Shown here: piece by piece, positions 54,433-64,000 of the stretch
How positions within the stretch are numbered: position 1 is the first letter of the stretch
How the letters are laid out: every line of letters starts with the position of its first letter
From: Roseburia hominis
GTDB lineage: Bacteria > Bacillota > Clostridia > Lachnospirales > Lachnospiraceae
NCBI GenBank assembly: GCA_021771815.1
Contig: JAETOE010000012.1
Span: 23,839 to 87,838 of the forward strand
Length of the DNA stretch: 64,000 bases
Direction of reading: 5' to 3'
Translations under genes and position numbers: made by a program
The notes under the pieces: generated by a model
Told to the model about the DNA's origin: nothing
Seen by the model: the letters and a program-made list of their open reading frames with translations, nothing else
Database searches by the model: none

Positions 54433-54800
54433 ATTATTTACGTTTCTCCTTCTGTGCAAGTTTCTAAGTTACCTCATATAAATTATACCGGCATTTTTCA
54501 TGCCAATCACCTCCATTCTTGCACAGATGGAATCAGAAACTAAAATTTGCTTTCGGACTGCCAATCAGAAGGGATTTTCAATTATGACTACCTGCATCGG
54601 TTCTCACCTGCCCCGATTCTCTGTAACATTCATCATTATTTACTCTGCTTCTTCAATTTGTTTTTTGTTATTATAATATCTGTTTTGTCACTTTGCAAGA
54701 TTATTCTATACAGGACAAATCTATACTAGAAACACAGAATCCCGTAAATTCAAGGGTTTTTCTTTGAAATGTAGGAATACTCACGAAATAGACTGCTTCC

Positions 54801-55052
54801 TTACACCCTCTGATACTTGATTCTGCCCTTAACTACACTTCCCGTTTCATCCTGTATATCCTGTCCAGATGAATCAGAAACTTCTTCCTCCACAATGAAC
54901 TCGGCAGGACAACCGGATAGCATAGTTCCGATAATAATTGTACCATCCGCTCTATGCGCCTGGCAACCCTTTAGTAAGGTTTCTTCGGTAACGGTATCCC
55001 CAGTCAGGTCAATTAACGTTCTATCTCCGTAAACAATTTTGTTTACCGACAT
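54801..55052 (-). CDS. Phage appendage-type small protein
   Basis: 83 residues: MSVNKIVYGDRTLIDLTGDT, VTEETLLKGCQAHRADGTII, then an acidic middle and GRIKYQRV. The first 45 residues repeat the N-terminal module of the next gene upstream (MAYNKVVYGGKTLMDLTGDS…). Such modules occur in phage tail or capsid appendage proteins of Firmicutes. Last gene of the prophage side that can be supported. Confidence 0.65.
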   Translation of the reverse strand: MSVNKIVYGDRTLIDLTGDTVTEETLLKGCQAHRADGTIIIGTMLSGCPAEFIVEEEVSDSSGQDIQDETGSVVKGRIKYQRV

Positions 55053-55056
55053 TCAA

Positions 55057-55635
55057 TCACCCCGCAATCGTTACCGTAGTACCTCCCGCAGAATTAGAAC
55101 TTTCTACATAGGGAATCGCACCCACCACAATCTGAGACAGATAGTTATACCCATCATCCGGCAGAATTGTCTGCTGGACGGTAGACGGAGAAACTGTTTT
55201 GGTCTGGGCATTTACATCCTCAGTTCCGGTCATGTTCCCCTCGACTCCAAGGACGGTAACTCCACTCCTGATATTTCCCGGAACAAGTTTCGCTTTCTCT
55301 GTCTCATCGATTTCTACAATTCCTGAACCGTCGTGATACCCAACAGGAACCACATACGAATCGTCTTTCCCTGATATGGTTCCCGCAACAGCACCGTGAT
55401 TAGGCATGGTTCCGATTACCTTGCTGCCTCTGGCATAGCCCGTTTTTCCTTTCAGAATCTCAGCCGCCGTAACTGTCGCATCCGTAGAGTCCACGTCAAA
55501 TGTACAGGTTCCGGCAATCGCTTCCCCGGATTTGTCATGGGCAGTCTCACCGGCGAGAAGTTTGTCCGGTGTCACGGAATCCCCTGTGAGATCCATCAGG
55601 GTCTTTCCACCGTAAACTACTTTGTTATAAGCCAT
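55057..55635 (-). CDS. Phage tail/appendage structural protein
   Basis: 192 residues. N-terminal module MAYNKVVYGGKTLMDLTGDS then LLAGETAHDKSGEAIAGTC, a middle with YARGSKVIGTMPNHG and ISGKDDSYVVPVGYHDGSGI, and a Gly/Thr/Val-rich end (SNSAGGTTVTIAG). This layout is common in clostridial phage structural proteins often annotated as tail protein. The start at 55635 overlaps the previous gene's end by 11 bp. It is paralogous at its N-terminus to the 54801 gene. Confidence 0.7.
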   Translation of the reverse strand: MAYNKVVYGGKTLMDLTGDSVTPDKLLAGETAHDKSGEAIAGTCTFDVDSTDATVTAAEILKGKTGYARGSKVIGTMPNHGAVAGTISGKDDSYVVPVGYHDGSGIVEIDETEKAKLVPGNIRSGVTVLGVEGNMTGTEDVNAQTKTVSPSTVQQTILPDDGYNYLSQIVVGAIPYVESSNSAGGTTVTIAG

Positions 55636-55924
55636 TCTCAACATCCTTTCCGATATATGCAGTTATTCCGCCCGAATCATTACTGGTCTCATAAAACGGA
55701 ACTTCTTTCACAACGACATCTTCTTTCGGTACCCGGTTGCTGGTAGGAAGTACCTGCTCCTCGAATGTCTTTGGAACAATTTTATACTCCCCACCGTAAA
55801 TATCATACTCTTTGGTAACGGACACTTTCCCCGACAGCCCGCCAACACATGACAATACCCCAGACAAAGAAACATCTGCAGCTATGGAGCCGGATAAAGT
55901 TTCCAATGCGTTGATGTTCCCCAT
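55625..55924 (-). CDS. Phage protein of unknown function
   Basis: 99 residues: MGNINALETLSGSIAADVSL, SGVLSCVGGLSGKVSV, then YDIYGGEYKIVPKTFEEQVL and a Gly-rich end (SNDSGGITAYIGKDVENGL). The Gly/Ser/Val composition suggests a virion surface or fibre part. It is immediately followed by the 55057 gene and preceded at 1 bp by the baseplate-like gene. Confidence 0.62.
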   Translation of the reverse strand: MGNINALETLSGSIAADVSLSGVLSCVGGLSGKVSVTKEYDIYGGEYKIVPKTFEEQVLPTSNRVPKEDVVVKEVPFYETSNDSGGITAYIGKDVENGL

Positions 55925-55925
55925 G

Positions 55926-56258
55926 TCAATCCACCTCTTCCGTCATTTTCATGCTCCCCTTGGTGATGAACGTGTCCACTTCCCCGGTAACTTTGGTAAG
56001 CTGAATGTCATAAACATACTTCCCAAAATCCAGAGCCTTGGTATCTCCTGGTTCGAGTATCAGCTTCATCGTGTCAATGGGTATGTCTTTTACCAAAAGA
56101 GGCTCGCCATCCTCGTATGACTTCTTCATCGCAAACCGTATGGAATCTCCTTCAACCGGGAGATATTGGCTCCCATCCGACTGTGTTATCGAAACGAGCG
56201 CCATAAAAGTATCGCCTCTTGTGAGGGTGATGGTAGTGCCCTGAACGCTATAACTCAT
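55926..56258 (-). CDS. BppU-like/baseplate-associated phage protein
   Basis: 110 residues starting MSYSVQGTTITLTRGDTFMA, a pattern seen at the N-terminus of baseplate upper proteins and related Ig-like phage proteins: GDSIRFAMKKSYEDGEPL, YVYDIQLTKVTGEVDTFITK. GAGGG precedes 56258; a longer frame to 56315 lies inside the membrane protein gene. It overlaps the 56248 gene by 11 bp. Confidence 0.65.
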   Translation of the reverse strand: MSYSVQGTTITLTRGDTFMALVSITQSDGSQYLPVEGDSIRFAMKKSYEDGEPLLVKDIPIDTMKLILEPGDTKALDFGKYVYDIQLTKVTGEVDTFITKGSMKMTEEVD

Positions 56259-56433
56259 CTCTATCCCTCTTTTCCAAAATATAATTTGCTGCCATACCAA
56301 CGGCACAAGACGCAATCAGCGCAAAAGCAATAAACGCCAGCCCTCCGTACTCAAACAGAATGGCCAGCGCTATTATCAGAACCGATATGAAAACCAGATA
56401 CAGCAGCAAAATCCACAGGCAGCCTTTCATCAT
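56248..56433 (-). CDS. Small two-helix membrane protein in the phage lysis region
   Basis: 61 residues, mostly two TM helices: WILLLYLVFISVLIIALAIL and GLAFIAFALIASCAVGMAAN, then a basic tail ILEKRDRDEL. It lies next to the holin gene and overlaps it by 4 bp. It may be a second holin or a spanin-like helper; not recognised. Confidence 0.6.
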   Translation of the reverse strand: MMKGCLWILLLYLVFISVLIIALAILFEYGGLAFIAFALIASCAVGMAANYILEKRDRDEL

Positions 56434-56639
56434 TTTCCTTCCGCCTTGTTATACTGCGCCGCACTGATCCCCAGAATCACACCCAGGAATGTATCCACCG
56501 CAGTGATGGTGCCCACTACCTGTTCCCCACAGGGCAGCCCCCAGATTCCTGCCAGGGCAAAATATAATGTGCCGGCAGCCGGAAGGAGATACTGTGCGAT
56601 CCATTTCAAAGTGTCATAGGTTTTGTTAGTCATCTTCAT
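56430..56639 (-). CDS. Phage holin (Dp-1 type)
   Basis: 69 residues: NKTYDTLKWIAQYLLPAAGT, LYFALAGIWGLPCGEQVVGT, ITAVDTFLGVILGISAAQYN. Two TM helices with a conserved YDxLK start match the Dp-1-like holin family of Firmicutes phages. It would permeabilise the membrane to release the endolysin. No endolysin gene follows in the window. It overlaps the upstream gene by 14 bp. Confidence 0.85.
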   Translation of the reverse strand: MKMTNKTYDTLKWIAQYLLPAAGTLYFALAGIWGLPCGEQVVGTITAVDTFLGVILGISAAQYNKAEGK

Positions 56640-56967
56640 GATTTACTTCCTCCTTGTATTGTGATTTGTGTATAGGTAGTTTGTTTACCTCGTTCATGAT
56701 ACGCTTGGCGGAGCCGTTTCCGCCCATCTTTTCATACGGCTTGTAGAGATACTCGTAAAGATTCTCATATTCATCGGAAGTGATCCACCCCCGGTCGATA
56801 TATGACATTCCCAGATACATAATCCGATCATGTCCCAGTCCTATAAGCATCTCTGTCTTTACGTCTTTTTTCTCTGCTCTTTTGGCGATATAAGCCCACA
56901 GCCCAGAAGACGCTAAAACTGAGCTAAAAACTGTCAGCAGTATTTGCATCCAGCCATCCATCTGCAT
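56626..56967 (-). CDS. Conserved phage membrane protein upstream of holin
   Basis: 113 residues. One N-terminal TM helix (MQILLTVFSSVLASSGLWAY) followed by a soluble part: KTEMLIGLGHDRIMYLGMSY, IDRGWITSDEYENLYEYL, YKPYEKMGGNGSAKRIMNEV. The pattern is typical of small proteins next to holins in clostridial phages; no function is assigned. Its 5' end overlaps the reverse transcriptase 3' end by 44 bp. Confidence 0.7.
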   Translation of the reverse strand: MQMDGWMQILLTVFSSVLASSGLWAYIAKRAEKKDVKTEMLIGLGHDRIMYLGMSYIDRGWITSDEYENLYEYLYKPYEKMGGNGSAKRIMNEVNKLPIHKSQYKEEVNHEDD

Positions 56968-58192
56968 AACCTCCTTCAGTTTTTTCTTGTGACTTATCCG
57001 TTATAATCATCTTTTTATCGACAATCGTAATAGTCTTGCCGAACAGCTCTTCGTACAAGCTGATCAGATTTTGCCGTTGCTGCCTCGACAATAATTTATA
57101 AAAGCCGCCCATCCAGCCACGGAACATATTCTCCACATGCTCATACAGGATTTCCCCGTTCTGGACTTTGACAGCCAGTTTTTTCAGTTTCCTCCTCATC
57201 GTGGTAACACGAGTTGGATTGATCCGCTTAATGATTTTGCCGTCTTTCGTAAGGCTGTAGCGAATCTGCAAATATTTGTAGGTGCTCGAAATCTTCACAA
57301 TCCGGGTCTTTTTCATGTTAATATGAATGCCAAGCTCTTTTGCAATCGCACAAATGTTTTCCAGCAAATCCTGCAATTCTTCCTTGCTCGGGTTCATGAT
57401 GTACCAGTCATCCATATACCGCCCGTAAAACTTCTGCTGCCTGACGTACTTCACATAATTGTCGATACGGTACGGGTAATAGATGCCGATAATCTGAGAC
57501 AGCTGATCACCAATATTGACAGACTTATACATCCATTTCTCGCCCGTCAGCTGGTTCTTTGGAATCTCCCGATAGTCAAGCTTATTAAACGTATCTTCCA
57601 TGCAGGACGCATATTCCTCATCCGACATATAAGAAACATCAATCTTGAATCCATCAAATATAAGAGTGAGCAGCCAGTCAATGAATTCGTCATCGTCGAA
57701 CAGCTTCAGCAGCTCCCTCTTTGCTATCTCATGTATGATATTGTCATAAAACTTGGAAAAATCCCCGAAAAGTATCCATCCCTCATTACCATGTAGCTTG
57801 TAGTAACGGCGGAGATGAACCTCGAAACGATCCCTTTGATGCGAGATGCCTCTGTCCTTGATGGAAGCACCGTTGTCATAAATGATATGTTTACGGACTT
57901 CTGGAAGAAGAACTTCGTCGCATAAGACGTGCCGTACAATCCGGTCACGGATACGAATGCTCGTAATAGGCCTGACCCGGCCTCTTTCGGACAGCGAGAA
58001 CTCCTCAGCCGGTCCATTTTGAAGTGTACGGTTGAGAAGGTCATCCTGTATGGCAATAAGATACCGCAGGAAGTTTATCATGAACTTCTGGGTAGTCTCC
58101 TTCCATTTGCTGCCCTTAATCGAGGCCTTGTAAGCCTTATACAAGTTGTTAGCGTCACAGACTATCTCCTCATACGTCATAAGATTATTCAC
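56924..58192 (-). CDS. DGR reverse transcriptase
   Basis: 422 residues. It copies the template repeat RNA into adenine-mutated cDNA. RT motifs are in order: RPITSIRIRDRIVRHVL (motif 1-2 region, about 74-90), catalytic Asp in LFGDFSKFYDNI (about 141-152), IGDQLSQ (227-233), which is the DGR form of motif 4 in place of QGxxxSP, and YMDD (259-262). There is no maturase X domain, HNH domain or retron-type DNA. GTG at 58192 is the likely start; ATG at 58180 is the alternative, neither with a strong ribosome binding site. It lies 100 bp downstream of the template repeat. Confidence 0.95.
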   Translation of the reverse strand: MNNLMTYEEIVCDANNLYKAYKASIKGSKWKETTQKFMINFLRYLIAIQDDLLNRTLQNGPAEEFSLSERGRVRPITSIRIRDRIVRHVLCDEVLLPEVRKHIIYDNGASIKDRGISHQRDRFEVHLRRYYKLHGNEGWILFGDFSKFYDNIIHEIAKRELLKLFDDDEFIDWLLTLIFDGFKIDVSYMSDEEYASCMEDTFNKLDYREIPKNQLTGEKWMYKSVNIGDQLSQIIGIYYPYRIDNYVKYVRQQKFYGRYMDDWYIMNPSKEELQDLLENICAIAKELGIHINMKKTRIVKISSTYKYLQIRYSLTKDGKIIKRINPTRVTTMRRKLKKLAVKVQNGEILYEHVENMFRGWMGGFYKLLSRQQRQNLISLYEELFGKTITIVDKKMIITDKSQEKTEGGYADGWLDANTADSF

Positions 58193-58291
58193 CGTTATAG
58201 CAATACTTACCGTAGTAAATTGCGTCCGGCTTTGCTATTTATCCTTGATGGAAAGGACAACATCTCCTTCTCTGTTGGTTAGGCAGAGAAT

Positions 58292-58380
58292 CCGGACGAA
58301 CCCCAAGAGAGCCCGACGCGTTGGCGTAGTTCGTATTGCCATTGTTGTTCACATTAGCGAAATTCGTCCCAGAAACGACG
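58292..58380 (-). repeat. DGR template repeat (TR)
   Basis: 89 bp aligned without gaps to 59447-59535. In the sense (minus) strand the TR has 19 adenines and 70 other bases. The other 70 are identical to the VR; 13 of the 19 adenines differ. The 60 bp nearest avd carry all adenines; the last 29 bp, beside the reverse transcriptase gene, have none and are identical. In the target frame the adenines sit in eight AAT/AAC codons, one TAC and two ACG, so stop codons are avoided. The TR begins 5 bp after the avd stop codon. Confidence 0.96.
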
Positions 58381-58385
58381 CAAAA

Positions 58386-58880
58386 TTAGATGTTACCCTG
58401 CTGCACGTATGACTTGATTTTGTTGTCCCGCTGACGCCACTTCTTTATCAAACCGATTTCTCGGTCGATAGCTTTTACATACCTGCCATAAACATTCAGG
58501 TCCACCTCAAAGGTCTCCACAACACGCTGCAGTTCTTTGATGATCTGTTCGCAGTTCACGATAGCAGAAGACTGGTAGTCCCTCCGCGTTTCATATTCCC
58601 TCATGGTAGTCGGATAGATGCTGTTTGCCGCTCTGACATTATTGGTCATAAGCGTTGCCAGATGATCTATTTCCTTCTTATGGGTCAACATCAGATAACG
58701 GTATTTCTCGAAATCCTCCGTATCATCCTTTCCATAAGCATAACGGAGCTGGACGAAATGCTCCAGGTCTTTCACCCCAAAGTTTCTCTGCATGAACTCC
58801 CGCAGCATGTTGTGTAATTCCGTTGAGTACGTAATGGGCTCGAACTTTGACTCTGTCCGGTCACTTACCAGAACGCTCAT
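58386..58880 (-). CDS. avd: DGR accessory variability determinant (Avd-like)
   Basis: 164 residues, almost all helix: LHNMLREFMQRNFGVKDLEH, RYAYGKDDTEDFEKYRYLML, NVRAANSIYPTTMREYETRR, QIIKELQRVVETFEVDLNVY, AIDREIGLIKKWRQRDNKIK. The basic four-to-five helix bundle, the place between target and TR, and size fit Avd, which binds the RT and the RNA. It is longer than the about 125 residues of phage BPP-1 Avd. ATG at 58880 overlaps the XkdX stop (TGATG); a TTG one codon upstream is less likely. Confidence 0.85.
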   Translation of the reverse strand: MSVLVSDRTESKFEPITYSTELHNMLREFMQRNFGVKDLEHFVQLRYAYGKDDTEDFEKYRYLMLTHKKEIDHLATLMTNNVRAANSIYPTTMREYETRRDYQSSAIVNCEQIIKELQRVVETFEVDLNVYGRYVKAIDREIGLIKKWRQRDNKIKSYVQQGNI

Positions 58881-59020
58881 CAATAATCCTTACCGGTGAT
58901 CTCCCGGAATTCCTCCTCAGTGATCCAGCCCATCTTTACGGCGTTACGGACGCGGACTTCATTCCACACCTTCATGTCGTGATAACGTTTTACTTTCTGG
59001 TAATTCTTGCTATGTTCCAT
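58880..59020 (-). CDS. xkdX: XkdX-family phage protein
   Basis: 46 residues: MEHSKNYQKVKRYHDMKVWN, then VRNAVKMGWITEEEFREITG. The family signature is a Lys/Tyr-rich start and W/I-T-x-E-E-F/Y-x-E-I-T-G. GAAAGGAGA precedes the start. XkdX proteins sit near the end of phage tail operons; the role is unknown. Here the gene is wedged between the DGR target gene and avd, so the retroelement has been inserted into, or grown around, the tail operon. Confidence 0.85.
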   Translation of the reverse strand: MEHSKNYQKVKRYHDMKVWNEVRVRNAVKMGWITEEEFREITGKDY

Positions 59021-59035
59021 GGTGAGTCTCCTTTC

Positions 59036-59344
59036 CTAGATTTCAATCCCGGCCATCATTGCGACGTACTCGATATCGGACTGTATTTTGATTTTTTCCA
59101 ATTCCGCCGCAGAGAGATCCCGCAGGACAAACCAGTAATCCTCTCCAACGGGAGTGATCTGAACCAGCTCCATGTTCTCATGAATTTCTTCATTCTCTCC
59201 ATCGCTGATGATTATGGGCGAACAGTTCCCTTCAAAAATCAGCGCATCGATGGAATCTCTGGAAATAAAGTTGTTCCCATTGATTCTAAGATTTTTGATC
59301 TCCGTTCCATCCGCAAGGGTAATTACATAGATTTTTTCATCCAT
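59036..59344 (-). CDS. Conserved phage protein in tail operon
   Basis: 102 residues: MDEKIYVITLADGTEIKNLR, INGNNFISRDSIDALIFEGN, CSPIIISDGENEEIHENMEL, then EDYWFVLRDLSAAELEKIKI. Beta-rich start and helical end. GAAAGGAAC precedes 59344; a start at 59371 is unlikely. It is common next to XkdX genes in clostridial phages, with no known function. 82 bp without a gene separate it from the target gene stop. Confidence 0.68.
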   Translation of the reverse strand: MDEKIYVITLADGTEIKNLRINGNNFISRDSIDALIFEGNCSPIIISDGENEEIHENMELVQITPVGEDYWFVLRDLSAAELEKIKIQSDIEYVAMMAGIEI

Positions 59345-59403
59345 TCCTATTGTTCCTTTCTTTTTTACCATCTTTTTCAGTTACCTGGATACGGTTTTCA
59401 CAA

Positions 59404-59418
59404 GGGGCACAAGGCCCC
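59404..59418 (-). other. Hairpin downstream of the DGR variable repeat
   Basis: GGGGC-ACAAG-GCCCC on the plus strand is a 5-bp G+C stem with 5-base loop; flanking bases AAGG extend it imperfectly. It lies 8 bp past the target stop codon and 29 bp past the VR. DGR target genes often carry a hairpin or cruciform at this place that promotes mutagenic homing. It could also end transcription weakly. Confidence 0.6.
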
Positions 59419-59426
59419 CGGATTAC

Positions 59427-60407
59427 CTAACCAACCACACCGAAGACCGGACGAACCCCAAGAGAGCCCGACGCGTCGGCGGAGATCGTACCGCCAAGGA
59501 GGTTCACACGAGCGAAACCCGTCCCAGAAACGACGTCTCTCAGCCACTGATTCTGCCTGTGGGGATTTATGAATCTCGGATAAATCCGCATCAAAGCCAA
59601 CTGTGTCTTATTGATTGTATAACGATACGGAACAGTTGTACCGTTTCCGGCCGGGGTATGCACATAAGCCCCATACATCATGATCTCGTTGGGTAATTCC
59701 ACCTTAGAATCGTACCAGGCTCCCGCAGAAGGGTATCCGTTGCTTACGGCATTCACCAGAAGTTCTCTGTGGTTCAGAATATTTGCAGCACCAAAGGCCG
59801 CATTCACCAGGGTTTTTGCATTCTCCAGATTTGTTGTATACATCTTAGAGCCGACATAGCCTCCGGTGGTAATATTCGTCTCGTTCATCTGGGCGTTGTA
59901 TAATACGGCATCCGGCATGATCACCAGATGAGGTGTCGTGCAGGAAGTATCACCGCAGTTCAGCCAGTAATTGATGTCAACAATTCTCCATATGTTATCA
60001 CCGACAGTCCAGTAATCACCGACAAAGAATCCCTTGAATGTTCCGGCCTTGATCTCGGCTTTCTGCGCCGCAGTCAGAGCAGGCCCCAGGTTTTTTCCCC
60101 TGAAAATATTTCTCCGCATTTCAACGGTTGCAAATTCATCAAGAACCGCAAATAACACGTCGTTGGACGCAATCGCCTTATTTCCGGTCGCCGTCCCGAC
60201 AAGAATCTTATCGTTAGCTGATAATGCATTGATCTGAGGCAGTTCGGAAAGATTGACTCCGGACATAAACTGCTCCGAATCAAGCAGGCCGATCAGTGCC
60301 TTTGCCAGATCCCCAGCCAGGATTCCCTTTGTGCCGCTTTCCCCGTCAAGCAGAAAAACATTGTCGGTTGAAAGTTTCTGCACTTTCTCATAATCTACGA
60401 TTTTCAT
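59427..60407 (-). CDS. DGR-diversified tail protein with C-type-lectin-like end
   Basis: 326 residues. The N-terminal part (MKIVDYEKVQKLSTDNVFLLDG) has tail-fibre or appendage style. The C-terminal part from about 130 (WTVGDNIWRIVDINYWLNCG, YTINKTQLALMRIYPRFINP, QNQWLRDVVSG, GSLGVRPVFGV) resembles the lectin-fold domains diversified by Firmicutes DGRs, with WLRD and GVRP as anchors. The variable positions are G297, R300, L303, L304, G306, I308, S309, D311; N302 is unchanged. CTCCTCC on the plus strand gives AGGAGG 6 bases before 60407; the upstream ATG at 60431 only overlaps the previous gene. It probably binds host surface ligands. Confidence 0.92.
   Translation of the reverse strand: MKIVDYEKVQKLSTDNVFLLDGESGTKGILAGDLAKALIGLLDSEQFMSGVNLSELPQINALSANDKILVGTATGNKAIASNDVLFAVLDEFATVEMRRNIFRGKNLGPALTAAQKAEIKAGTFKGFFVGDYWTVGDNIWRIVDINYWLNCGDTSCTTPHLVIMPDAVLYNAQMNETNITTGGYVGSKMYTTNLENAKTLVNAAFGAANILNHRELLVNAVSNGYPSAGAWYDSKVELPNEIMMYGAYVHTPAGNGTTVPYRYTINKTQLALMRIYPRFINPHRQNQWLRDVVSGTGFARVNLLGGTISADASGSLGVRPVFGVVG
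59447..59535 (-). repeat. DGR variable repeat (VR)
   Basis: The VR covers the last variable part of the target gene, from GTC-GTT-TCT to GTT-CGT-CCG. Relative to the TR, sense codons change AAT to GGT, AAT to CGT, AAC to CTC, AAT to CTT, AAT to GGT, AAC to ATC, TAC to TCC and AAC to GAC. One AAC and both ACG codons are unchanged. The last 29 bp (59447-59475) have no sense adenine and are the candidate initiation of mutagenic homing (IMH). Confidence 0.96.
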
Positions 60408-60427
60408 ATCGCTCCTCCTCGTTAAAA

Positions 60428-61558
60428 TCATTTGGTTACAAATATAACTCTGGCATCAATCGGATTTCCGCTGCTGTCCAGAATAAGTTCACTTGAATGG
60501 GTGCGGCCGGTCACTGCGTCAATATCGCTGTCAAGAACGTCTTTATTTGAAGAATCCTGTACAGCGCCATATGTTCTGTATCCGCTGTCATAAAGCTGGT
60601 GGTATACCGCATACTCCGTTGAAAGGACTTCGGAGAATACTTCCAAAACCTTCGTTCTATTTTGAAGCTCCAGAATCTCCTTCGCCATATTAGCGGCAAC
60701 GTCACTTGAAAGCATTGCCTGCAGGTTCTGAAACCAGCTTACAAAATCTGTCTGGCTCTGATCCCTCCAATCCGCCATTTCAGCAGTATATCCGTTGGTA
60801 TACCCATAAAACCACTGTTCCCATTGCTGCTTCCAGAAAACATTCGTGCGCTCCATATCTATCGTTTGGGACTGAAACCAATCCGTCCATTGTTTTTCCC
60901 ATGCAAGATATGCCTCCTGGATCTCCGTTGTCTGCGCCAAAAACCAAGTTGCCCACTGTTCTTTCCAGAAAATATTGGTATGTTCCATGTCGGCCACTTG
61001 TCTGGCGTAATATTCCTCCCACTGATCGCCCCACTGCGCAATGAGGTCGTCAATGCTGATGGTGTCAATAATTCCAGTGACAAATGGTGTCGCCGAAGTA
61101 CCCACCATATTCGTGATATTGGACTGCCGGATTTCTGTAACGCCGGACCCAACATATATGTACGCCAGCGGATACTGGTGAACTGCACTCGTATTGACCA
61201 TTAGAGGTCTTGCAGGATTAGTAGCCGGCGTTCCTTTTATCACTTTGATTGTATTTTCGCGGACGCTTTCCTCCGCATTTACTTCCAAAATAATGGCGTC
61301 AATTCTGTTAAGGATTATCTCCGATAACGGAACCTCAATCGGGAGCAAGGAGTCGTTCAGAGTCCATGTATGATTGAACCAGGCCCGTCCCACCCCAACT
61401 GTAACCATCATTCCGGAATTTGACTTTACGACCATGTGATCGCCGATTGACATATAAATGCCATCGCTGATAATTCCATCAAAAATACTTGATATCTGTA
61501 TCGAATTGTATCGGCGGTCATGGTTCTTCGCATTGTAAAATCCATACGTTACACTCAT
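60428..61558 (-). CDS. Phage tail/baseplate upper protein with W-rich repeats
   Basis: 376 residues. The N-terminal half MSVTYGFYNAKNHDRRYNSI, FDGIISDGIYMSIGDHMVVK matches upper baseplate or fibre-anchor proteins of Firmicutes siphoviruses. Residues 188-252 (DNA 60803-60997) hold three imperfect repeats of about 22 residues (TNIFWKEQWATWFLAQT, AYLAWEKQWTDWFQSQT, TNVFWKQQWEQWFYGYT). A C-terminal coiled coil and a domain with DSSGNPIDARVIFVTK follow. The diversified protein gene follows after 20 bp, so this protein may hold it on the virion. Confidence 0.75.
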   Translation of the reverse strand: MSVTYGFYNAKNHDRRYNSIQISSIFDGIISDGIYMSIGDHMVVKSNSGMMVTVGVGRAWFNHTWTLNDSLLPIEVPLSEIILNRIDAIILEVNAEESVRENTIKVIKGTPATNPARPLMVNTSAVHQYPLAYIYVGSGVTEIRQSNITNMVGTSATPFVTGIIDTISIDDLIAQWGDQWEEYYARQVADMEHTNIFWKEQWATWFLAQTTEIQEAYLAWEKQWTDWFQSQTIDMERTNVFWKQQWEQWFYGYTNGYTAEMADWRDQSQTDFVSWFQNLQAMLSSDVAANMAKEILELQNRTKVLEVFSEVLSTEYAVYHQLYDSGYRTYGAVQDSSNKDVLDSDIDAVTGRTHSSELILDSSGNPIDARVIFVTK

Positions 61559-61570
61559 CTGCAGAACCTC

Positions 61571-62629
61571 CTATTCCACTACGCTGAAAGTCGGGTATGT
61601 TTCATAACCTGTCGTGTCCTGTGCCCTGACGATTTCAATCACCCGAACTTTTGATTCTATTCCATACTCGTTTACAATCTGAACGATATCCCCTTTATAA
61701 AAATCCTTTCCATAAACAAACGTCTGCGTAGACTCCACCTGCCCCTCGAACGACTTGGTAAGCTGATACTCAGAAAGTTTTTCTTTTCCTCTTTGGTCCA
61801 ACTGGGCATTGTATTCTCCATCTGACAATTTTCCGTCCTGTGTTTCAGACTGTATATCTCTGGCGTCCGTATAAATCTCTCTCCGGTTTAAGTCTTTCCC
61901 AGTTCCAACAATCCGTGTGCACCTTGTTGAACCTGCATCTTCCCCTGCTACCAAAGTCACATTTTTCAACGTTTTCTTTGACTCCAGATAATTGCTGTTA
62001 ATGATATTTTCAAACTTAGGAGAAAATACAACATAAGGATTGACTGATTGATCATAAGAACGGTCCGCTCCGGAATAAAGACTAAATACAAACTGATTCT
62101 GCTCATTGAGTATGATCTGAAATCCAAGATTATAGGCTTTGCAAATGGTTTCTATGGTTTCGTACAGATTGTCCCCGGTATACTGAGCCCGTATCGTCAG
62201 ACCCGTTATATATGGATCTTTTGATTCCTGGAATACAAACCCTGCAATCTTCCGATCTGCAATAACCGGAGAAATAACATTTTCGGTAATCAGCTTTTTA
62301 ATCCCATTTTGAAGATTTCCGTTAAGCACTGTTTGCTGCCAGACAATGCGCCGGTCCAGAATAGATTCCAGGGAACGTCCAGATATTGTCAAATGTCCTC
62401 CGGTCTCCACTTCCGTCCCGATCTGAACTTCCTCCACAATCATCACCTGATCTGAATCCTTCAGCCAGGCATAATAGTCCTGCTTCACTGTTTTCATAAG
62501 TTCAGCATTTGCTGGTGTATAAATCTCAAAGTCTCCAAAACCATGATACCTCTCAGTCCAGATCAGAGACTCGAAAGCATCGATTAGACAGACCTGCTGA
62601 AACTTTTCGTCCATAATCAATACTTCCAT
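61571..62629 (-). CDS. Siphovirus Gp37-like tail protein (ReqiPepy6 Gp37-like family)
   Basis: 352 residues: LIDAFESLIWTERYHGFGDF, IYTPANAELMKTVKQDYYAW, LTISGRSLESILDRRIVW, and a C-terminal half with FEGQVESTQTFVYGKDFYKG. This is the pattern of the Gp37-like tail-associated protein that follows the distal tail protein in many Firmicutes phages and forms part of the tail tip. AAGGAG 8 bases before 62629 decides the start. Confidence 0.88.
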   Translation of the reverse strand: MEVLIMDEKFQQVCLIDAFESLIWTERYHGFGDFEIYTPANAELMKTVKQDYYAWLKDSDQVMIVEEVQIGTEVETGGHLTISGRSLESILDRRIVWQQTVLNGNLQNGIKKLITENVISPVIADRKIAGFVFQESKDPYITGLTIRAQYTGDNLYETIETICKAYNLGFQIILNEQNQFVFSLYSGADRSYDQSVNPYVVFSPKFENIINSNYLESKKTLKNVTLVAGEDAGSTRCTRIVGTGKDLNRREIYTDARDIQSETQDGKLSDGEYNAQLDQRGKEKLSEYQLTKSFEGQVESTQTFVYGKDFYKGDIVQIVNEYGIESKVRVIEIVRAQDTTGYETYPTFSVVE

Positions 62630-62632
62630 AAT

Positions 62633-63550
62633 CTATACTCCTTCATATATGATTCTGTTTTCAATCTTAAACTGCAGGTTTTCTGAACCGTATTCCGCCA
62701 CATAGGCAAAAATATTATCGCCTTTTGACAGCTGGAACCAGTCCGAACCTTTGTCCAGGCAGTTGAGGATATTGGTATAACGGCCTGTTCTAAGCAGCCG
62801 GATTGATTTCTCTCCCCGGACGGTTGTGATGATGATGTCATCACCGGATATGATTCCTGAACCAGTAAGAGCTTCCAGCTTATCCGTATCGATCCGCATT
62901 ACTTCCCTGGTCCCGGTATTGTAAATTGTAATGTTCCTTGCTTCTCCAATAGCGTGGATTGTGATAGTTACTCCGATCTCCGCATCCCCGTCATAATAGA
63001 CTGAACGCTCCGTCTGATTTTCTATAGAGCCGAATTCAATCAAGTCCTCATCAAGGGAATTATTATCAAACTCAAACTCAAAAAGGGGTTCCACGCCATA
63101 GAAAATAGTTACGTTATTTCCATTTTCCCCGGCCGAATAAAAATACGGGTCCGGGCATACGATAGAGATCTGACTGGACTCCTGCTCGCTGAAAATATTT
63201 GGCTCGTTGGATTCAACATACCCCTTTGTCCTGACAATCCGATTATCCGTCTCTACAAGGAAATCGAGGAACTTCTTAATCGGAAAATACTTGTAGGTTG
63301 TCTGTCTTGCGTCTTCAATCCTTGGAGCTTCGGTAAAATATAACTGCATAACGATATTTCGCTCTTCAAGCCTTGCCGAGTTATACAGCGAGCCGTCATT
63401 TGTCGCCAGATTCGTAGTATTGACATCGGCCTTAGCGGGACCAAGACCTTCTATGCTTTTGATGAGCAAACCATGTTCGGGGTCATCATCGGCAAGGTTA
63501 ATCTTGATCCATTCGCCAAGGTAATTTGTTACTGTTACTGATTTGATCAT
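62633..63550 (-). CDS. Phage distal tail protein (Dit-like)
   Basis: 305 residues: MIKSVTVTNYLGEWIKINLA, LIKSIEGLGPAKADVNTTNL, RNIVMQLYFTEAPRIEDARQ, YFPIKKFLDFLVETDNRIV, then PDPYFYSA and a galectin-like C-terminal half. It is the Dit/tail component N-terminal family that caps the tail tube. Stop-start overlap ATGA with the tape-measure gene upstream and 3 bp before the Gp37-like gene. Confidence 0.9.
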   Translation of the reverse strand: MIKSVTVTNYLGEWIKINLADDDPEHGLLIKSIEGLGPAKADVNTTNLATNDGSLYNSARLEERNIVMQLYFTEAPRIEDARQTTYKYFPIKKFLDFLVETDNRIVRTKGYVESNEPNIFSEQESSQISIVCPDPYFYSAGENGNNVTIFYGVEPLFEFEFDNNSLDEDLIEFGSIENQTERSVYYDGDAEIGVTITIHAIGEARNITIYNTGTREVMRIDTDKLEALTGSGIISGDDIIITTVRGEKSIRLLRTGRYTNILNCLDKGSDWFQLSKGDNIFAYVAEYGSENLQFKIENRIIYEGV

Positions 63551-64000
63551 GTGCTACTCACCGCTCCCTTCATCGCCGCAAACTGGTTCTTAGTCTGCCG
63601 GTAGATATCTTTCCGGGACAGAGCTTTCGGCGAGTAGTTATTCTGCACGAAACTGTATGTATTCGATGCAGGCTGTTGATAGTTTCCTGAAGCATTATCA
63701 GCGGCAACAGAACTAATTTTATTGTCCCTTGCGGCCGACAGAGCTTTATTATAGGAAGCCGACATATTCAACCCCTTTGTGAACAGGGAATTGATTTCGC
63801 TGACTCCATTTTGAACATTTGTCATATCCAGAACCGGCCTGATAGTCGGCTCCGTGTCCATCTCTCTGTTTACGATATCCGAAATATTGTCACACGTCGA
63901 ATTATAGTTCCCACCTACGGCAGTATTACCGCAGATTGAATTCGGCATCTCCTTCATATTGTCTATCTTAACGTGCTGTGTTTTACGGCACGTTTTTATC
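63547..64000 (-). CDS. C-terminal end of phage tape measure protein (5' part outside window)
   Basis: The frame stays open to the right edge, with about 150 codons visible and no start. It ends ALSAARDNKISSVAADNASG, NTYSFVQNNYSPKALSRKDI, YRQTKNQFAAMKGAV, the usual C-terminus of tape measure proteins before Dit. An ATG at 63957 is only an internal codon, since the same frame continues upstream (IKTCRKTQHVKIDN). The prophage therefore extends beyond the window. Confidence 0.8.
   Translation of the reverse strand, partial: IKTCRKTQHVKIDNMKEMPNSICGNTAVGGNYNSTCDNISDIVNREMDTEPTIRPVLDMTNVQNGVSEINSLFTKGLNMSASYNKALSAARDNKISSVAADNASGNYQQPASNTYSFVQNNYSPKALSRKDIYRQTKNQFAAMKGAVSST

What the first reader, a model, noticed from the sequence alone, without database searches (positions are those of the whole stretch)
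56924..60407. Complete diversity-generating retroelement inside a prophage tail operon
All parts are present on one strand within 3.5 kb: target gene with VR, an XkdX gene and a small phage gene, avd, TR and RT. Seen directly: the 89-bp TR (58292-58380) and VR (59447-59535) align without gaps; 13 differences, all at sense adenines of the TR (13 of 19), none at the other 70 bases. The RT has IGDQLSQ and YMDD. Known: this adenine bias is diagnostic of DGR mutagenic homing. Inference: the phage diversifies a receptor-binding tail protein. The 13 substitutions imply at least one past homing event.
Basis: partly seen in the sequence, partly recalled or inferred. Interest (0 to 1): 0.93.

Follow-up and report, generated by a model that had tools for sequence, protein, structure and literature searches.

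The report
Phage retroelement rewriting two lectin-like genes
A virus resident in a bacterial chromosome carries a gene-rewriting cassette whose template differs only at adenines from parts of two of the virus's own genes, one in the tail region and one far away, and the sequence beside the template is complementary to the sequence beside both targets, which is a likely but untested way for the cassette to find them.

Summary
The finding is real. TR (58292-58380) and VR (59447-59535) differ at 13 of 89 bases, all TR adenines (chance 2e-11); RT, avd and XkdX are intact. Three things are added. (1) The window ends at a contig end. The prophage continues on another contig, with a second, distal VR: from TR position 7 on, 8 differences, all at adenines, in a 185-aa early-region DUF6273 gene. 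A five-base mark of this TR is in both VRs. Ten of ten RT-bearing viral records of 50 kb or more have a distal VR; its natural variation peaks at TR-adenine codons. (2) 109 of 112 unique VRs are followed by a GC-rich hairpin with a 5-nt loop (CTTGT in 82); 0 of 53 TRs are. (3) The TR 3' flank is complementary to the VR 3' flank (median 19 bases, 52 pairs), covaries (0 of 100,000 permutations), and its motif sits in different reading frames in the two targets. In one fixed-window test, 0 of 16 pairs from 15 other phages show it. Distal targets are known elsewhere; I did not find the complementary flanks in print.

The parts
56924..58192 (-). DGR reverse transcriptase, 422 aa, GTG start
   Evidence: phrog_1423 8.8e-63; RVT_1; IGDQLSQ and YMDD; best solved-structure match 8ub7_A, 6e-11
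58193..58291 (-). spacer between TR and RT (99 nt), predicted part of the TR RNA
   Evidence: sequence
58268..58290 (-). TR 3' flank hairpin TTCTCTG-CCTAACCAA-CAGAGAA; loop and 3' arm (58274-58283) complementary to the VR 3' flank
   Evidence: stem pairs change on both sides among relatives; complementarity
58292..58380 (-). template repeat (TR), 19 adenines
   Evidence: relatives
58386..58880 (-). avd, accessory protein
   Evidence: phrog_3206 7e-11; ATG at 58880
58880..59020 (-). XkdX
   Evidence: PF09693 2.5e-17
59036..59371 (-). small gene without family match
59404..59418 (-). hairpin GGGGC-CTTGT-GCCCC 3' of VR1, predicted target-site element
   Evidence: 109 of 112 unique VRs have one of this class
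59426..59435 (-). box GTTGGTTAGG, reverse complement of the TR 3' flank
59427..60407 (-). tail-operon target gene, 326 aa, VR at its 3' end
   Evidence: no family match
59447..59535 (-). variable repeat 1 (VR1)
   Evidence: 13 of 13 differences at TR adenines
54720..54730 (.). predicted attachment core TCTATACTAGA, prophage end; the other end is at C85:11777-11787
   Evidence: contig L057 runs across the junction
54720..64000 (-). part of the prophage held in the window (lysis, DGR and tail end); it continues beyond the contig end. Its other end, C85:1-11787 of the same genome, carries the distal target gene (C85:2806-3363, minus) with VR2 (C85:2829-2911)
   Evidence: one IMG/VR record with both DGR and distal gene

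Best explanation
This is a prophage diversity-generating retroelement (DGR) whose single template repeat matches, apart from adenines, variable repeats in two genes of the same prophage, a tail-operon gene and a small early-region DUF6273 gene, and whose reverse transcriptase is predicted to rewrite both by adenine-specific mutagenic homing, likely steered by a template-flank RNA that would pair with the coding strand just 3' of each target. Shown: the parts; adenine-only differences at both VRs (the distal one from TR position 7 on); a five-base TR mark present in both VRs; a GC-rich hairpin with a 5-nt loop after nearly every VR; and complementarity between TR flank and VR flank that covaries among relatives. 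Inferred from BPP-1: cDNA is primed in the spacer and replaces VR. Inferred and untested: the cDNA pairs with VR while the spacer hairpin's loop and 3' arm pair with the adjoining box on the same strand, a splint that picks out true targets near and far. Inferred: the tail target binds host surfaces; the early target binds some other variable partner.
For: VR1: 13 of 13 differences at adenines. VR2: 8 of 8 from TR position 7 to 89 (chance 1.9e-6). TR mark at five positions identical in TR, VR1 and VR2, against 0 of 5 and 2 of 5 in the VRs of relative L012/L056. Relatives: tail 850 of 867 (62 of 67 pairs used), distal 387 of 398 differences at TR adenines (29 pairs). Distal target entropy 2.60 bits at 14 TR-adenine codons, 0.12 at 14 other VR codons, 0.27 elsewhere (26 of 45 rows). 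One prophage. Hairpins 109 of 112 VRs, 0 of 53 TRs. Complementary flanks. Same layout in phage Fontainebleau, whose RT is 42% identical.
Against: No activity was measured. TR, RT and VR2 were not seen on one contig in this genome; the join rests on relatives. Two BPP-1 results speak against pairing being essential there: swapping both stem arms kept homing, and complementing the 4-nt spacer kept wild-type activity (PMC3240598, passages). Fontainebleau and 14 other phages lack the complementarity in the 40/40-nt test, so DGRs can do without it. In one search several single types (L014, L101, L102, L121) do not have their cognate as best partner; 16 of 68 tail and 18 of 44 distal flanks lack the exact TGGTTA. 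Eight of 27 genomes and 24 of 39 RT-bearing IMG/VR records, many of them fragments, show no distal VR.
Confidence: 0.8

Rival explanations
1. [quoted passage not shown]
For: The box is on the coding strand, so it is also in the mRNA. TR and tail target lie in one operon-like run. BPP-1 homing tolerates stem exchange and spacer complementing (PMC3240598). 15 other phages' DGRs lack it in the fixed-window test.
Against: The box lies between VR and the hairpin, at the target site, in both targets, though these are different genes in different modules.
Confidence: 0.25
2. The complementarity has no function: it is a relic of how the cassette arose, or a by-product of coding and stem sequence.
For: Much of the signal is one common word, TTGGTTAG/CTAACCAA, in related phages.
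Against: Cognate pairs beat non-cognate pairs (0 of 100,000 permutations; 6 of 100,000 without the five most diverged types) and the same-strand control does not (11,525 of 100,000). Diverged L118, L115 and L031 keep long complementary runs with other letters. TGGTTA is in frame 2 in 52 of 68 tail genes and frame 1 in 26 of 44 distal genes.
Confidence: 0.12
3. The distal VR is, or was, written by another retroelement, for instance the second DGR on C85, and only resembles this TR.
For: Another DGR is present in the same genome.
Against: VR2 matches this TR at every non-adenine base from TR position 7 on and shares its five-base mark. The other DGR's match to this TR is 76% over 55 bases. Distal and tail VRs go with one RT in 10 of 10 records of 50 kb or more.
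Confidence: 0.03
4. The window's own copy has stopped working; the differences are old.
For: This TR has 5 fewer adenines than that of relative L012. No reads were at hand.
Against: RT, avd, TR, boxes and hairpins are intact, and both VRs carry the altered TR's mark plus further adenine changes.
Confidence: 0.12

Closest known systems
BPP-1 DGR (mtd, avd, TR, brt)
   Same: Order target-avd-TR-RT, adenine-only TR/VR differences, GC-rich hairpin 3' of VR (PMC3240598 passages); best solved-structure match of the RT is 8ub7_A, which I recall to be the BPP-1 enzyme
   Different: One target there; GRNA 4-nt loops against 5-nt CTTGT-type loops here. A 16-base complementarity of the BPP-1 spacer to its VR hairpin appears with the annotated TR end and a 60-nt flank (p 0.001) but not in the 40/40 test, whose window does not reach it
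Quimbyvirus DGR and other gut prophages with a distal second VR (PMC8008677, PMC12629997, PMC11792537; passages)
   Same: One TR, a tail-side VR and a second VR; in Quimbyvirus the second is distal to the structural module with lectin-type targets, in four gut prophage species it lies near counter-defence genes such as a DNA methyltransferase; here too an N6_Mtase-like gene is close
   Different: Quimbyvirus RT is frameshifted and its second target on the other strand; host group differs (Bacteroides); flank complementarity was not described in the passages read and was not tested here for Quimbyvirus
Tentaclin DGRs nd4 and nd12 (PMC10743442, passages)
   Same: One TR with two lectin-domain targets
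   Different: Both targets lie in the DGR cassette; 40/40 flank test p 0.118 (nd4) and 0.999 (nd12); nd4 p 0.043 with 60/45 windows
Acutalibacter phage Fontainebleau (ON453893)
   Same: TR, tail VR and a distal VR with 15 of 15 differences at adenines, in a DUF6273-like gene next to a DNA polymerase gene; 5-nt loop hairpins by eye
   Different: RT 42% identical; no flank complementarity. The phage paper does not contain the words retroelement or DGR (PMC10197239, word search)

Membership tests
Diversity-generating retroelement | DGR-type reverse transcriptase | tested here: met
   phrog_1423, motifs IGDQLSQ and YMDD; best PDB match 8ub7_A. That IGxxxSQ marks DGR enzymes is recalled
Diversity-generating retroelement | TR/VR pair with differences at TR adenines only | tested here: met
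   13 of 13 and, from TR position 7, 8 of 8; relatives
Diversity-generating retroelement | Accessory protein (Avd) | tested here: met
   phrog_3206 7e-11
Diversity-generating retroelement | VR in the 3' part of a C-type-lectin-fold target gene | tested here: inconclusive
   Both VRs are at 3' ends. Distal target: model pLDDT 79.9, one Foldseek match at E 9e-4 (9qa6), C-type lectins only at E 0.26 and above. Tail target: poor model
Diversity-generating retroelement | Mutagenic homing in cells | not testable with these tools
   no reads, no experiment
BPP-1-type target site | Hairpin 3' of VR with 7-10 bp GC-rich stem | tested here: inconclusive
   A GC-rich hairpin is there, but stems are mostly 5-6 bp
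BPP-1-type target site | 4-nt GRNA loop | tested here: not met
   5-nt loops: CTTGT 82, CCTGT 16, CTCGT 9, CTAGT 1, CTTGC 1 of 112
DGR with distal second target (Quimbyvirus kind) | Second VR outside the cassette in the same phage | tested here: met

The most novel reading that the evidence does not exclude
This DGR lineage is an RNA-guided gene editor: the spacer hairpin of its template RNA carries a guide (CUAACCAA and covarying versions) that pairs with the coding strand between each VR and its hairpin, so that any gene fitted with VR, guide box and hairpin becomes a target anywhere in the phage genome, including an early gene outside the tail module.
Probability: 0.4. Interest if true: 0.87.

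Novelty: new variant of a known kind. Interest (0 to 1): 0.65.

Why it matters
How the mutated cDNA of a DGR finds and enters its target is called incompletely understood in a 2026 paper (PMC12875486, passages). A covarying complementarity between the template RNA's flank and the target's flank makes RNA-guided target choice directly testable. The conserved early-region target shows that these phages hypermutate something besides a tail protein, with an unknown binding partner. The hairpin and box give a search rule for distal targets that lie far from the RT (about 50 kb in lysogens).

Tried and rejected
Exact att repeats between window 50-58 kb and C85:9-12 kb: nothing above 12 bp; settled by contig L057 across the junction. 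TR/VR pairs in other phages: the first script had a bad threshold and found none, not even in BPP-1 (whose family figures stand); redone. There the MT835491 pair is doubtful, because its flanks resemble each other on the same strand (by eye), and the BPP-1 window does not reach the stretch that paired; I therefore do not use BPP-1 as support. Other windows: nd4 p 0.043, Shimadzu 0.277, Brigit 0.39, own second DGR 0.45; Fontainebleau 0.147 and 0.942. Coding as the cause of the box: rejected by the frame difference. Rfam on window 54600-62000: no match. Sequence matches in the PDB for avd and both targets: none at E 1. DNA relatives of window 54720-64000 among 50,697 phage records: none (near mode).

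Rows dropped: one search sets aside L009, L030, L118 (decayed TR) and L088, L112 (gapped) from 67 tail pairs. One search uses 26 of 45 rows. In one search, 3 of 44 loci (L017, L042, L051) gave no VR. One search covered 39 of 46 RT loci's records plus 7 chosen for the distal gene; one search asked for 28 of 41 genome loci and 27 were held. In one search two pairs (L046, L048) were added by coordinates. G057 has distal matches about 111 kb from its TR on one contig and is left out of the distance list. Five records with distal homologues of 52-58% identity had no pattern match; what writes them was not tested. In one search seven of 53 TRs have some other 5-nt-loop hairpin with few G-C pairs. 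The window left of about 54.7 kb was not studied.
Full report
OBSERVATION. The cassette is as described. Along the minus strand: target (59427-60407), small gene, XkdX, avd, TR, RT, then a phrog_4105 gene and a holin. TR and VR1 differ at 13 of 89 positions, all TR adenines (chance 1.9e-11). The RT is open over 422 codons with IGDQLSQ and YMDD and matches the PHROG reverse transcriptase family; its best match among solved structures is 8ub7_A (that this is the BPP-1 enzyme is recalled). avd matches 'Avd protein of DGR'.

THE PROPHAGE IS SPLIT OVER TWO CONTIGS. The window is G000:C56:23839-87838 of a contig of 87,838 bases, so position 64000 is a contig end. A search of the own genome with the TR found TR, VR1, a 90% match at C85:2829-2911 and a 76% match over 55 bases at C85:96517-96571. 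C85 begins with phage genes on the minus strand followed by an integrase. IMG/VR contig L057 matches window 54720-56444 at 96% and C85:8635-11787 at 95%, the two stretches overlapping by 11 bases; the junction reads TCTATAnTAGA in all three. The window's tail end and the start of C85 are thus two ends of one prophage. By addition, TR and the C85 copy are about 12 kb apart in the excised form (11.4 kb in record G004). In 12 related genomes with TR and distal VR on one contig the distance is 48.5-51.8 kb (11) or 58 kb (one); a thirteenth, G057, at about 111 kb, was left out.

A SECOND TARGET. The C85 copy is the 3' end of a 185-aa gene, C85:2806-3363. From TR position 7 to 89 it differs at 8 positions, all TR adenines; positions 1-6 do not match (chance for the 83 bases 1.9e-6). 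This strain's TR lacks five adenines that the TR of relative L012 has; at these five positions TR, VR1 and VR2 carry the same letters, while VR1 and VR2 of that relative agree with them at 0 and 2 of 5. The mark ties the three together; it does not tell whether the TR changed first or was written back from a VR. The gene is DUF6273 (8.8e-7), close to two DUF6353 genes and an N6_Mtase-like gene, and has 1040 homologues at E 0.001. Among 26 of 45 aligned homologues (80% identity or more) entropy is 2.60 bits at the 14 codons with TR adenines, 0.12 at the 14 other VR codons and 0.27 at the other 157 residues. A model (pLDDT 79.9) gives one Foldseek match at E 9e-4 (9qa6) and C-type lectins only from E 0.26 up.

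HOW COMMON. 46 RT loci came from IMG/VR and 41 from genome contigs, mostly Lachnospiraceae and other Clostridia by record title. TR/VR pairs were found in 41 of 44 IMG/VR loci examined. A degenerate pattern found distal VRs in 14 of 39 RT-bearing records, and a scan with its own TR added G035. Many records are fragments; the ten of 50 kb or more all have one, while three of 44-47 kb (G010, G015, G018) show none. Of 27 genomes searched, 19 have at least one distal match, on the same or another contig, and eight have none. Some phages have two distal copies (G005, G038, G041). Phage Fontainebleau of Acutalibacter muris, RT 42% identical, has the same layout: distal VR with 15 of 15 differences at adenines, in the gene after DNA polymerase I.

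ADENINE STATISTICS. Over a 66-base core, tail: 67 pairs, 961 differences, 886 at adenines; without five decayed or gapped TRs, 62 pairs, 867 differences, 850 at adenines, 17 of 2754 other sites. Distal: 29 pairs, 398 differences, 387 at adenines, 11 of 1292 other sites.

THE TARGET SITE. After 109 of 112 unique VRs (68 tail, 44 distal) comes a GC-rich hairpin with a 5-nt loop: CTTGT 82, CCTGT 16, CTCGT 9, CTAGT 1, CTTGC 1; the other three have CTTGT with an imperfect stem. Of 54 sequences first labelled TR one has it, and that one lies in a 272-codon frame and is a mislabelled distal target; 0 of 53 TRs have it, seven having a hairpin with another loop and few G-C pairs. In L076 the hairpin lies inside an extended reading frame, so it is not simply a terminator. 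Guo et al. describe 7-10 bp stems and GRNA loops for other phage DGRs (PMC3240598, passages).

THE COMPLEMENTARY FLANKS. The TR is followed by a hairpin, TTCTCTG-CCTAACCAA-CAGAGAA here. In 21 of 23 flank types where it could be read by script its inner stem pairs vary on both sides (pair 7: G-C 10, A-T 6, G-T 1). Its loop and 3' arm are complementary to the stretch between VR and the VR hairpin (GTTGGTTAGG here). Perfect runs of 8 nt or more occur in 41 of 53 unique tail pairs, with shuffles averaging 4.1-5.3, and in 1 of 53 for the same-strand control; distal pairs 19 of 21. With gaps allowed a median of 19 bases pair, and z exceeds 2 in 52 of 52. Over 22 TR-hairpin types cognate pairs score 11.0 and non-cognate pairs 8.6, reached by 0 of 100,000 permutations; without the five most diverged types 6 of 100,000; same-strand control 11,525 of 100,000. 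L118 keeps CTTCATAATC, L115 CTTCTCCAT and L031 a 13-nt run with letters of their own, though several single types do not have their cognate as best partner. TGGTTA is in frame 2 in 52 of 68 tail genes and frame 1 in 26 of 44 distal genes; the rest lack the exact word. In a 40/40-nt test 44 of 49 family pairs have p below 0.05, against 0 of 16 pairs from 15 other phages (lowest p 0.118; caveats in Tried and rejected). It looks like a trait of this lineage. Three searches did not turn it up in print, nor did the passages read of PMC3240598 and PMC12875486; I found no paper on the 8ub7 structure in the library, and most subscription papers are not held.

MECHANISM. PMC12875486 (introduction, passages) says that the BPP-1 spacer folds, recruits bRT-Avd and primes cDNA from an internal adenine, and argues that cDNA pairs with transiently single-stranded target. 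If so here, cDNA and spacer hairpin would lie side by side on one strand, since the box is on the coding strand directly 3' of VR. This splint is inference. BPP-1 stem and spacer exchanges that kept function speak against its being needed there (PMC3240598), and an mRNA role is not excluded.

NOVELTY. Several VRs and a distal second VR are known: Quimbyvirus (PMC8008677, passages), four gut prophage species (PMC12629997, passages), Lelie, Lagaffe_CP and CP11 with two variable regions (PMC11792537, passages), tentaclins (PMC10743442, passages). New as far as seen: the lineage-wide early-region target in Clostridia phages, the 5-nt loop class, and the covarying complementary flanks.

Noticed in passing
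G000:C85:95053-98095 (L006:5054-8096): A second, unrelated DGR in the same genome: RT 439 aa, an avd-sized gene, and a DUF6273 target whose 3' end resembles the sequence between that gene and the RT with changes mainly at adenines (by eye); no flank complementarity.
   Followed up: partly
TRs of L118, L030, L009; window 58292-58380: Some TRs have lost most adenines (4, 7 and 11 in a 77-base core against 22-27 in most; 20 here), as if the template had itself been overwritten.
   Followed up: partly
L005 3698-9973: 35-46 bp stretches recur several times in the early region, before early genes by position; possibly promoters or operators.
   Followed up: no
L076, L139-L142, L146: In some phages the distal target runs on past the VR: longer reading frames (304-354 codons) with the VR hairpin, loop CCTGT, inside the frame.
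   Followed up: no
L136 (G057:C3:184400-187500): Two distal-type targets only 620 bp apart, about 111 kb from the TR on the same contig.
   Followed up: no
L005:5713-5784: A tRNA-like gene of undetermined type in the phage early region.
   Followed up: no
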